Below are positions 2 through 48,400 of a stretch of 64,000 nt of DNA, one piece after another. This stretch comes from Streptomyces sp. NBC_01235 (GTDB lineage Bacteria > Actinomycetota > Actinomycetes > Streptomycetales > Streptomycetaceae): assembly GCF_035989285.1 (NCBI RefSeq), contig NZ_CP108513.1, forward strand, positions 10,850,001-10,914,000, read 5' to 3'. Each line of letters opens with the position of its first letter. Position 1 is the first letter of the stretch. A program made the position numbers and the translations under genes. The notes beneath the pieces were generated by a model. It was not told the origin of the DNA. It searched no databases and saw only the letters and a program-made list of their open reading frames with translations.

Positions 2-2008
2 ACGCCCGAGCCCGCCCCGGTGCTCGATCTCGCCGCGCTGCGCGCCGACTGCACCCGGGCCGTGCCCGCCGACGAGGTGTACGACCGGTTCGCCGGGCTC
101 GGCATCGCCTACGGCCCGCGGATGCGCGCGCTGCGGGAGCTGCGGGCCGGCACCGGGCAGGTCCTGGCCAGGACGGCGCCGACCGGGCCGGCGGGGCGCA
201 CCCCGTACACCCTGCACCCGGGCCTGCTCGACGCGGCACTCCAGGCGGCCGCCGGTCTGCCCCCGCTGCCCGGCGCGGCCGGCCTGCCAGGCGCAGCGCT
301 GCCGTTCGCACTCGACGAACTCGCCGTGCACGCGCCGCTCGACCAGGCAGCATGGGTATGGGTGCGCCGACGCGAGGAGCAGGCCGGCCCCGACGGGCAG
401 GTCCTCGACCTCGACCTCTGCGACGACGACGGCCGGGTCCGGGTGACCCTGCGCGGGCTGCGTCTGCGCGCCGCCGCCGTACCCGCCGTACCTGCCGCCG
501 CGGCAGGACCCGCCCAGGGCACGCTGCTGCTGGCCCCGGTGTGGCAGGAGGCACCCGCACGGGAGCCCGAGCCGGCCGAGCGTGTCGTGATCCTGCCCCG
601 GCGGTTTGCCGCGGTCCCGGTGCCCGGCGCGGGCCTCGTCCCGCTGGACGGCCGCATCGAGGCGTACGAGGACGACGCGGCGCTGGTGCTGCGGGAACTG
701 AAGCGCCTGACCGCGGACGGCGCCCCGAAGCCGACCCGGTGCCAGCTCGTCGTGCCCGAGGACGAGCTCTGGGCCGCCGGGCTGGGCGGCCTGCTGCTCT
801 CCGCCGCCCAGGAATACCCGGGTCTGGACGTCCAGACGGTTCAGGTGCCCGCCGACGCCGACGCCGCGACGGTGACCGCGCACCTCGACCGGGCGCTGCG
901 GCTGCCGTCGGCGGCCCGGATCCGCGGCGGCCGGGTGGCCGGCTGGACGGAGCTGCCCGACCGGGAGGCGCCGGCCCCGTGGTGTGACGGCGGCGTCTAT
1001 CTGGTCACCGGGGGCCGCGGCGGCATCGGGCGGCTGCTGGCCGCCGAGATCGTCCGACGGACGCCCGGTGCGAGCGTCGTCCTGGTCGGCCGCTCACCCG
1101 CGCACGAGCTGCCCGGCGAACTCGGCGACGCACGGGTGTCGTACCGGCAGGCCGACGTCGCCGACTCTGGGGCCGTACGCCGGCTGGTTGCCGGCGTGCT
1201 CGCCGAGCACGGTCGGCTCGACGGCGTCCTGCACGCCGCCGGGGTGTTGCGGGACGGCCTGCTGGCGCACAAGACGCCCGAGGACCTGGCCGCCGTCCTG
1301 GCGCCGAAGAGCGCCGGGGCCCGCAACCTCGACGAGGCGACCCGGGACCTTCCGCTGGACCTCTTCGTGCTGTTCTCCTCGGCCACGGGGTCCTTCGGCA
1401 ACGTGGGCCAGGCCGACTACGCAGCCGCCAACGGCTTCCTCGACCGGTTCGCCGACCACCGGGCCGCCCTGGTCGCCCGCGGCGAGCGGCACGGCACCAC
1501 CGTCTCGGTCGGCTGGCCGCTGTGGGCCGAGGGCGGCATGACCGTCGACGACGCGACGGTGGCGGCCCTGCGCGACATCGGCCTGGCCCCGCTGGCCACC
1601 GCCGACGCCATGCGCGCCCTGTACCGCGCACTGGCCTCGGGCCGCAGCCACCTGGTGGCGCTCACCGGCGAACTCGCCCGGTTGCGGGACCAGTTCGTCA
1701 CCGCCTCCGTCGACCCGGCGGAGGTCACCCGGGTCCAGGCCGAGCTCGGCGCCCTGGTGTCACGGATCCTGCTCGTCGACGCGGCGGACCTCGACCCCGA
1801 GACGGAGCTGAACGACTACGGCTTCGAGCCGGTCACCCTGGCCGAGCTGGCCCGGCGGATCAACCTGGCCTTCGCACTGGACGTCGGCACCGCCGAGCTG
1901 CTGGAGCACACCACCCTGGGGCGGCTCGCCCACCACCTCTGCGACACGTATCCCCACCTCGTCGGCCGGTCCGGCGGAGCCAAGGAGATGAACGATGCCA
2001 GCGCCTGA
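2..2008 (+). CDS. trans-AT PKS subunit, C-terminal part (DH-KR-ACP0), 5' end outside window
   Basis: End of a modular polyketide synthase subunit already open at the window edge; its KS and the first half of its DH lie upstream. Seen in order: second half of a DH, with HPGLLDAALQ at about nt 215-244 carrying the DH acid; a KR with GGRGGIG near nt 1011-1031, FSS, then ADYAAAN, so the catalytic Ser and Tyr are present; and an ACP fold at about nt 1731-1965. The KR has LDG where B-type KRs carry their diagnostic Asp. The ACP has GFEP instead of GFDS, so no serine can carry the phosphopantetheine arm. The stop overlaps the start of the next PKS gene by 14 bp, and that protein begins with an intact ACP that could complete the module. 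Family and domain calls are firm; the role of the dead ACP is inference. Confidence 0.93.
   Translation, partial: TPEPAPVLDLAALRADCTRAVPADEVYDRFAGLGIAYGPRMRALRELRAGTGQVLARTAPTGPAGRTPYTLHPGLLDAALQAAAGLPPLPGAAGLPGAALPFALDELAVHAPLDQAAWVWVRRREEQAGPDGQVLDLDLCDDDGRVRVTLRGLRLRAAAVPAVPAAAAGPAQGTLLLAPVWQEAPAREPEPAERVVILPRRFAAVPVPGAGLVPLDGRIEAYEDDAALVLRELKRLTADGAPKPTRCQLVVPEDELWAAGLGGLLLSAAQEYPGLDVQTVQVPADADAATVTAHLDRALRLPSAARIRGGRVAGWTELPDREAPAPWCDGGVYLVTGGRGGIGRLLAAEIVRRTPGASVVLVGRSPAHELPGELGDARVSYRQADVADSGAVRRLVAGVLAEHGRLDGVLHAAGVLRDGLLAHKTPEDLAAVLAPKSAGARNLDEATRDLPLDLFVLFSSATGSFGNVGQADYAAANGFLDRFADHRAALVARGERHGTTVSVGWPLWAEGGMTVDDATVAALRDIGLAPLATADAMRALYRALASGRSHLVALTGELARLRDQFVTASVDPAEVTRVQAELGALVSRILLVDAADLDPETELNDYGFEPVTLAELARRINLAFALDVGTAELLEHTTLGRLAHHLCDTYPHLVGRSGGAKEMNDASA
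1731..1965 (+). other. Serine-less acyl carrier domain (ACP0), Ser to Pro
   Basis: ACP-like fold at the end of the first PKS subunit. The helix II motif reads DYGFEPVTL. The codon at 1829-1831 is CCG (Pro) where a Ser codon is expected, so 4'-phosphopantetheine cannot be attached here. The rest of the fold is well kept, including the acidic region before the motif and the LLEHTTLGRLAHHL helix. Confidence 0.88.

Positions 2009-48400: not shown

What the first reader, a model, noticed from the sequence alone, without database searches (positions are those of the whole stretch)
1731..48150. Three serine-less ACPs, each after a KR and each followed by an intact ACP
Carrier domains at 1731-1965, 18990-19200 and 47950-48150 have Pro, Gln and Arg in place of the phosphopantetheine serine, while the fold is otherwise kept. 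All three sit directly behind a KR. In each case a working ACP comes next: first on the following protein (1995), first on the 36663 protein (by inferred order), and after an inserted MT in cis (42407). Three different replacements in the same architectural place argue against random decay. They suggest a conserved structural role, such as a docking platform or spacer that hands the chain to the next ACP. I do not know of a described trans-AT system with this repeated arrangement.
Basis: partly seen in the sequence, partly recalled or inferred. Interest (0 to 1): 0.8.

Follow-up and report, generated by a model that had tools for sequence, protein, structure and literature searches.

The report
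Dead carrier domains inside polyketide modules
A bacterial polyketide assembly line keeps four carrier domains that have lost the one residue they need to carry anything; relatives show the same kind of dead carrier at the same spots inside modules, so it looks like a recurrent, little-noticed feature of these machines, probably a retained spacer, and not a new kind of machinery.

Summary
In detail: codons 1829 (Pro), 19085 (Gln) and 48041 (Arg) replace the carrier serine in domains that are otherwise ACPs. A fourth lies upstream of the window, so 4 of the line's 21 carriers are dead. The arrangement is widespread. In 349 homologous proteins, carriers just before a methyltransferase are Ser-less in 26 of 26 cases, carriers between KR, MT or DH and a KS in 0 of 808. 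Orthologous positions stay Ser-less while the replacing residue drifts. I read them as folded spacers in modules whose real arm is another ACP. Two classes occur here: KR-ACP0-MT-ACP (H, upstream A, probably C//D) and KR-ACP0//ACP (A//B). C probably hands on to the 22655 protein, not to 36663. Against a required docking or hand-over role: one orthologous module lacks exactly this domain, KR-MT-type KRs end proteins without it, and it evolves faster than working ACPs. Single cases are in print; ten searches found no general description.

The parts
1718..1963 (+). ACP0 number 1: C-terminal Ser-less carrier of protein A (GFEP, codon 1829), after KR 989-1570
   Evidence: Pfam PF00550 8.3e-12
2001..2258 (+). 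working ACP (GTDS) that begins protein B, partner of ACP0 number 1
18182..18766 (+). KR of the last module of protein C; best two non-ACP0 relatives are KRs of KR-MT modules
18965..19213 (+). ACP0 number 2: C-terminal Ser-less carrier of protein C (GFDQ, codon 19085)
22655..23401 (+). degenerate methyltransferase region (no SAM motif found) at the N-terminus of protein D, probable next domain after ACP0 number 2; the true start codon is uncertain
   Evidence: Pfam MT match only to the later part of the profile, E 2e-4
23630..23890 (+). working ACP (GINS) of protein D, probable arm of the split C//D module
36675..36923 (+). working ACP that begins the 36663 protein (G); probably the starter carrier, not the partner of C
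   Evidence: order is inference
47099..47686 (+). KR of the methylating module of protein H
47924..48169 (+). ACP0 number 3: internal Ser-less carrier of protein H (GWDR, codon 48041); 47966-48190 is identical in DNA to the copy in protein A
48584..49141 (+). MT with intact SAM motif (ILEVGAGTG) after ACP0 number 3
49295..49546 (+). working ACP (GIDS) after the MT, the real arm of this module

Best explanation
The Ser-less ACPs are dead carrier domains kept as folded spacers inside modules that possess another, working ACP. The working ACP is loaded by the discrete AT, presents the chain to KR, DH and MT and passes it to the next KS; the ACP0 takes no covalent part. Two kinds occur here: (M) methylating modules, KR-ACP0-MT-ACP, in cis (H and the upstream part of A) or probably split between proteins (C//D); (T) a tandem pair KR-ACP0//ACP split between A and B, whose first member has died. 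Loss of Ser leaves one arm per module, so that an extender cannot be loaded on a carrier badly placed for the MT or the next KS. Shown: position, lost Ser, kept fold, Ser-less state conserved in orthologues, presence or absence between orthologous modules. Inferred: spacer role, advantage of a single arm, order C to D.
For: Context table for 349 homologues: ACP before MT 26/26 Ser-less, each with a Ser-bearing ACP right after the MT; KS-ACP-DH 16/17; KS-ACP-KR 10/12, the two exceptions having no further ACP in the protein; against KR-ACP-KS 0/443, MT-ACP-KS 0/284, DH-ACP-KS 0/81. A lone ACP inside a module (DH-ACP-KR) keeps Ser (0/23 Ser-less). Where a catalytic domain lies between two carriers, exactly one has Ser in 53 of 54 cases. 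KR-MT linkers fall in two groups, 194-279 aa without carrier (263) and 300-375 aa with ACP0 (21), none with a Ser carrier. Main core columns stay hydrophobic in 53 ACP0s against 447 active ACPs while Ser is 0%. C's ACP0 models as an ACP, pLDDT 88.3, best PDB matches carrier proteins. Where present at orthologous positions it is Ser-less in 18 of 18, the 4 of this genome included. At the C-terminus, where a stop would cost little if the domain were useless, all 6 C-type copies found reach the end of the ACP0.
Against: ACP0 evolves faster than the working ACP of the same protein in all 5 C-type comparisons and faster than the next ACP in 6 of 8 H-type rows (in own_A and P0077 the reverse, since the ACP0 there was copied by conversion), as a decaying relic would. 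It is missing in one orthologous module and in 263 of 286 KR-MT modules. Several core columns are less hydrophobic than in active ACPs (57: 0.99 to 0.77; 67: 1.00 to 0.72; 79: 1.00 to 0.84). Adjacent tandem ACPs mostly keep both arms (KR-ACP-ACP 32 of 43 with Ser), so a second arm is not harmful as such. In P0017 both carriers have Ser and in P0321 the later one is dead instead. No experiment shows a spacer effect.
Confidence: 0.58

Rival explanations
1. Neutral relic: the ACP0 is a leftover of recombination, tolerated in frame because the linker must stay open, and on its way to deletion.
For: Faster evolution than neighbours; clean absence in P0026 and in a related module of Streptomyces sp. 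NBC_01549; 9-11 changes of state on trees of 286 modules; PMC7619045 speaks of an ACP0 as an evolutionary structural remnant (passage).
Against: Main core columns kept at low identity (32-35% between C-type copies of distant genera); none of the 6 C-type C-terminal copies found is truncated; no Ser in 26 of 26 copies before MT, where pure relaxation should leave some.
Confidence: 0.3
2. Docking or hand-over platform: the ACP0 binds the next protein or the next ACP and positions it.
For: Two of four ACP0s end a protein (14 aa follow the ACP0 in A, 1 aa in C) and B opens with its ACP; KR-ACP-C-terminus is Ser-less in 12 of 33.
Against: The other two are internal; of 71 KRs ending a protein without ACP0, 42 are of the KR-MT lineage (some records may be truncated); 263 of 286 KR-MT modules do without; positions at the start of helix II and in the helix III stretch, conserved in active ACPs, are changed.
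Confidence: 0.15
3. Programming element: in KR-ACP0-MT-ACP the dead carrier keeps the only arm behind the MT, so that the alpha-carbon is methylated before the KR reduces the keto group.
For: 26 of 26 carriers before an MT lack Ser; the ACP0 modules of H and A keep KR and MT motifs.
Against: 263 of 286 KR-MT modules have no ACP0; D's MT is degenerate yet C keeps its ACP0; A//B has no MT.
Confidence: 0.15
4. Sequencing or assembly artefact.
For: Pro CCG is one base from a Ser codon (genetic code).
Against: Orthologues in other species are Ser-less at the same three places; the frames are open throughout.
Confidence: 0.01

Closest known systems
ACP9a of the phthoxazolin synthase (PMC5764310; passages seen)
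   Same: Trans-AT PKS of Streptomyces; first ACP of a module lacks Ser, the other is active; noted by the authors as inactive-type
   Different: One case, in a module with KS0 of a dehydrating bimodule; no positional rule, comparison or function in the passages seen
ACP after the last KS0 of labrenzin PKS/NRPS13 (PMC6855096; passages seen)
   Same: Trans-AT carrier without the GxDS motif
   Different: Follows a non-elongating KS, not KR before MT or ACP; reported in passing
ACP0 as a term: mupirocin MmpE paper (PMC7619045, passages); aureothin ACP0 (PMC6916388, figure legend only)
   Same: Inactive carrier in a modular PKS; the first speaks of a structural remnant
   Different: MmpE_ACP itself proved active; aureothin is a cis-AT system (recalled)
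Tandem ACPs of trans-AT PKSs
   Same: A//B is a tandem pair in effect; KRs of KR-ACP0-ACP modules are nearest to KR-ACP-ACP in 6 of 11
   Different: KR-ACP-ACP first members mostly keep Ser (32 of 43); here the first is dead and the pair is split between proteins
Docking domains of trans-AT PKSs, four-helix bundle and DHD (PMC9113145, passages)
   Same: Lie at subunit ends of split modules
   Different: Those are about 25 aa tails or a stretch of about 70 aa after a KS, not ACP folds; ACP0 also occurs inside proteins

Membership tests
Inactive carrier domain (ACP0) | Acyl carrier fold | tested here: met
   PF00550; AlphaFold model of C's ACP0, pLDDT 88.3, best PDB matches are carriers; the other three were not modelled with success
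Inactive carrier domain (ACP0) | No phosphopantetheine-accepting Ser | tested here: met
   Pro, Gln, Arg codons; Ser-less in orthologues
Inactive carrier domain (ACP0) | Cannot be loaded by a phosphopantetheinyl transferase | not testable with these tools
   needs mass spectrometry
Trans-AT polyketide synthase | Modules lack AT; discrete AT present | tested here: met
   No Pfam AT in B, C, D, E, G, H or the window part of A, none in the precomputed domains of full-length A, P0002; two AT domains and an NMO-type domain in the 29423-34960 protein
Tandem ACP | Two or more adjacent functional ACPs | tested here: not met
   A//B pair has one dead member
Four-helix-bundle or DHD docking domain | Short (about 25 aa) helical tails at both partners, or about 70 aa after a KS | tested here: inconclusive
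   By length only: 14 and 1 aa follow the ACP0s of A and C, B opens with its ACP; nothing modelled
KR-ACP0-MT-ACP arrangement recurring in trans-AT PKSs | Recurs with Ser lost in separate lineages | tested here: met
   21 of 21 in other genomes; 9-11 changes on FastTree trees of 286 modules, gain and loss not told apart

The most novel reading that the evidence does not exclude
Trans-AT synthases follow a one-arm rule: when a processing domain stands between two carriers of a module, one of them, nearly always the first, is killed but kept as a folded spacer. In methylating modules this dead carrier sets the order of events (methylation before ketoreduction) by keeping the only arm behind the MT, and it is moved and homogenised between modules as a unit by gene conversion.
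Probability: 0.2. Interest if true: 0.75.

Novelty: new variant of a known kind. Interest (0 to 1): 0.55.

Why it matters
Domain-prediction programs count carriers, and engineers cut and fuse modules near them. If dead carriers mark a fixed architectural place and are gained or lost as a unit, they tell where modules can be opened, and natural pairs of ACP0-bearing and ACP0-free modules make their role directly testable. The rule may also help to infer subunit order: an ACP0 at a protein's C-terminus suggests that the next protein starts with MT or ACP, as used here for C to D.

Tried and rejected
Insertion route: I first thought that an MT-ACP cassette had been inserted behind a KR-ACP module, leaving the old ACP as a scar. 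Rejected for class M: the KRs of KR-ACP0-MT modules have their best non-ACP0 relative in KR-MT modules in 20 of 23 cases and in KR-end in 3, none in KR-ACP-KS, although the ACP0s themselves hit KR-type active ACPs best in 14 of 23. Gain against repeated loss could not be decided.

Order C to 36663: rejected in favour of C to D, by inference.

My confidence in the best explanation went from 0.60 to 0.58 for this.

ACP0-MT model from five rows: pLDDT 49.7, discarded. Solved structures: in the 44 matches of the 898-aa KR-ACP0-MT region of H, no best stretch covers the ACP0. Rfam: nothing at gathering thresholds. dN/dS not done: no orthologous DNA could be fetched (one search gave one related locus, without ACP0; searches matched only the own genome among 150 and 392 genomes). 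Those two genome searches scored at most 18 and 6 candidates per genome, so absence there says little.

Limits: the 349 proteins are the best 120 of 705, of 531 and of 490 hits, overlaps and the two own proteins removed. They were picked by similarity to KR-ACP0 regions of this cluster, and my ACP HMM was trained on this cluster's carriers, dead ones included. Counts are of 90% clusters, not independent events. Some records are partial. The Ser column is uncertain in very weak domains (TIAY in P0147; P0003's truncated N-terminal ACP, counted as Ser-less in the N-ACP-KS row). Literature: ten searches of open-licence PMC papers only; one search listed 25 of 123 papers and one search listed 15 of 17.

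Full report
What is there. The window holds most of a trans-AT polyketide synthase. With the upstream stretch of the same genome, HMM annotation gives: G ACP-KS-KR-ACP-KS; H MT-ACP-KS-DH-KR-ACP0-MT-ACP-KS-DH-ACP-KS; A MT-ACP-KS-DH-KR-ACP0-MT-ACP-KS-DH-KR-ACP-KS-DH-ACP-KS-DH-KR-ACP0; B ACP-KS-DH-KR-ACP-KS-DH-MT-ACP; C KS-DH-KR-ACP-KS-KR-ACP0; D degenerate MT-ACP-KS-ACP-C-PCP (C from Pfam); E KS-KR-PCP. There are 21 carriers, 4 without Ser.

Order of the proteins. A and H start with MT-ACP, and G and H end with KS, so G-H-A is natural. G-H-A-B-C-D-E is the only linear order I could build. Further support: C's last KR has its two best relatives outside the ACP0 class among KRs followed by MT (the third is a KR-ACP-KS), and in its orthologues P0237 and P0238 all four best are of the KR-MT kind; D begins with an MT-like region without SAM motif. 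In this order each carrier directly followed by MT or ACP is dead (4 of 4) and each other carrier has Ser (17 of 17); D's second ACP stands before a C domain that my HMMs do not cover. The order remains inference.

Is it more than this cluster? Three homology searches listed 351 different proteins (the best 120 each of 705, 531 and 490), 349 of them not from this genome, annotated with HMMs built from this cluster. Carriers lacking Ser, by neighbours: KR-ACP-MT 21/21, N-terminal ACP-MT 4/4, DH-ACP-MT 1/1, KS-ACP-DH 16/17, KS-ACP-KR 10/12, KR-ACP-C-terminus 12/33, KR-ACP-ACP 11/43; KR-ACP-KS 0/443, MT-ACP-KS 0/284, DH-ACP-KS 0/81, DH-ACP-KR 0/23. Other rows of that call: KS-ACP-KS 0/88, ACP-ACP-KS 2/83, N-ACP-KS 1/73 (a truncated domain), KS-ACP-C-terminus 1/59, ACP-ACP-C-terminus 0/41, MT-ACP-ACP 0/37, KS-ACP-ACP 1/35, MT-ACP-C-terminus 0/25, ACP-ACP-ACP 0/24, N-ACP-ACP 1/8, DH-ACP-C-terminus 1/2, KR-ACP-DH 0/1, DH-ACP-ACP 0/1. 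All 26 carriers before an MT have a Ser-bearing ACP right after that MT. The two Ser-bearing KS-ACP-KR cases have no later ACP in the protein. That leaves 54 cases in which a catalytic domain stands between two carriers: the first is dead in 52, the second instead in one (P0321), and both have Ser in one (P0017, a weak domain). So 53 of 54 have a single arm. Named sources of Ser-less cases include Streptomyces, Dactylosporangium, Brevibacillus, Chitinophaga, Paenibacillus and Clostridia (names; cases).

Insert or not. KR-to-MT distances form two groups: 194-279 aa without a carrier (263 modules) and 300-375 aa with ACP0 (21 modules), so a hidden carrier in the short group is unlikely. On FastTree trees of 286 modules (23 with ACP0, two own copies included) the state changes at least 11 times on KR and 10 on MT, and 9 on both together against 20-23 in 50 shuffles. 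ACP0 modules are thus clustered but arose or were lost several times. KRs of KR-ACP0-MT modules are closest to KRs of plain KR-MT modules (20 of 23; KR-end 3), so the ACP0 came into, or was lost from, a methylating lineage. KRs of KR-ACP0-ACP modules are closest to KR-ACP-ACP (6), KR-ACP-KS (3), KR-ACP-C-terminus (1) and KR-end (1) of 11: there the dead domain is one of a tandem pair. KRs of KR-ACP0-C-terminus: KR-MT 10 and KR-end 4 of 14.

Conservation. C-type ACP0: Gln here, Arg in 5 of 5 others. H-type, A-internal copies included: Arg in both own copies and five others, Ala in two. A-end: Pro in 3 of 3, own included. Together 18 of 18 copies, 14 of them outside this genome, are Ser-less. 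Identity to this cluster is lower for ACP0 than for the working ACP of the same protein in all 5 C-type comparisons (0.85 against 0.88, 0.83/0.88, 0.70/0.90, 0.32/0.54, 0.35/0.60) and lower than the next ACP in 6 of 8 H-type rows; in own_A and P0077 it is higher, because the ACP0 there was copied by conversion. Across 53 ACP0s (own ones included) against 447 KR-ACP-KS carriers, main core columns stay hydrophobic (15, 41, 49, 53, 66 and 75 at 1.00), Gly 40 is 96% and Asp 42 83%, while Ser 43 goes from 100% to 0% (Pro 35%, Arg 28%). Other columns relax (among them 19, 44, 57, 65, 67, 79), and the residues favoured at 63, 64 and 67 (K, T, F) fall to 4% (unweighted). C's ACP0 models as an ACP with the Gln at the start of helix II (pLDDT 88.3), and the best PDB matches are carriers.

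Absence and transfer. In the A. bryophytorum orthologue of A (P0026, a partial record; 79-91% identical over ten domains) the module corresponding to the A-internal ACP0 has similar flanks but no ACP0. Here, A's ACP0 is identical in DNA to H's over 225 bases (H 47966-48190), between flanks that differ in most codons and resemble P0026 rather than H. S. capoamus shows the same: A-type flanks around an ACP0 nearly identical to that of its H-type protein. The domain is therefore gained or lost as a unit and homogenised by gene conversion; the direction of the A. bryophytorum difference is not settled.

Mechanism. An ACP without Ser cannot carry the arm (established biochemistry), so the working ACP of each module must do all carrying. 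The fold is constrained but the surface is relaxed and the domain can be absent, which fits a spacer better than a required platform. That a lone internal ACP keeps Ser while a redundant one across a catalytic domain does not suggests that two arms there are harmful, for example by loading an extender on a carrier that cannot reach the MT or next KS; adjacent tandem ACPs, which mostly keep both arms, show that a second arm is not harmful as such. That cause is inference. Docking is weakened by 42 of 71 protein-ending KRs without ACP0 being of the KR-MT lineage, some perhaps truncated records.

Known before. Phthoxazolin ACP9a, a labrenzin ACP and an aureothin ACP0 (legend) are single reports; the mupirocin paper uses ACP0 for a structural remnant. 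The gladiolin ACP0 in PMC10921412 is an engineered mutant. In sesbanimide the ACPs of SbnO and SbnQ all have Ser. A study of trans-AT evolution (PMC7930024) mentions ACP twice in its main text and never 'inactive'. Passages of PMC7157528, PMC8302727, PMC5698493, PMC8549798 and PMC11260071 gave nothing on Ser-less ACPs. I found no statement of the positional rule in ten searches of the open library; most subscription papers are not held.

Verdict. Observation confirmed, coordinates exact. New variant of a known kind; interest 0.55.

Noticed in passing
upstream of the window, codon at window coordinate -11044 (L020, protein A aa 1925-2001): A fourth Ser-less ACP (GWDR) in protein A, identical over 225 bases to that of H.
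   Followed up: yes
44327-45526, 47087-47686, 47927-48166, 48407-48886 (H) and the matching parts of A: Patches of 90-100% DNA identity between the paralogous modules of A and H among stretches of mostly 54-81%: patchwork gene conversion touching KS, KR, ACP0 and MT.
   Followed up: partly
22655-23401: N-terminal methyltransferase region of protein D lacks a recognisable SAM motif and is probably dead.
   Followed up: partly
P0013, P0030, P0063, P0078, P0081, P0093 and others: A second class of dead carriers directly behind a KS and before DH or KR, often in methylating modules, in several phyla.
   Followed up: partly
P0321 aa 2348-2853: The reverse case: KR-ACP(Ser)-DH-ACP(Ala), where the later carrier is the dead one.
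   Followed up: no
24008-25315: The KS of protein D has HGSAT where the other KSs have HGTGT; possibly a non-elongating KS before the C domain.
   Followed up: no
29423-34960: Discrete protein with two AT domains and a nitronate-monooxygenase-type (ER-like) domain, like the tandem-AT protein of the phthoxazolin cluster.
   Followed up: no
54451-56067 and 57569-58960: A free-standing AMP-binding enzyme and a PLP-dependent decarboxylase after H; they may supply the starter loaded on the first ACP of G (guess).
   Followed up: no
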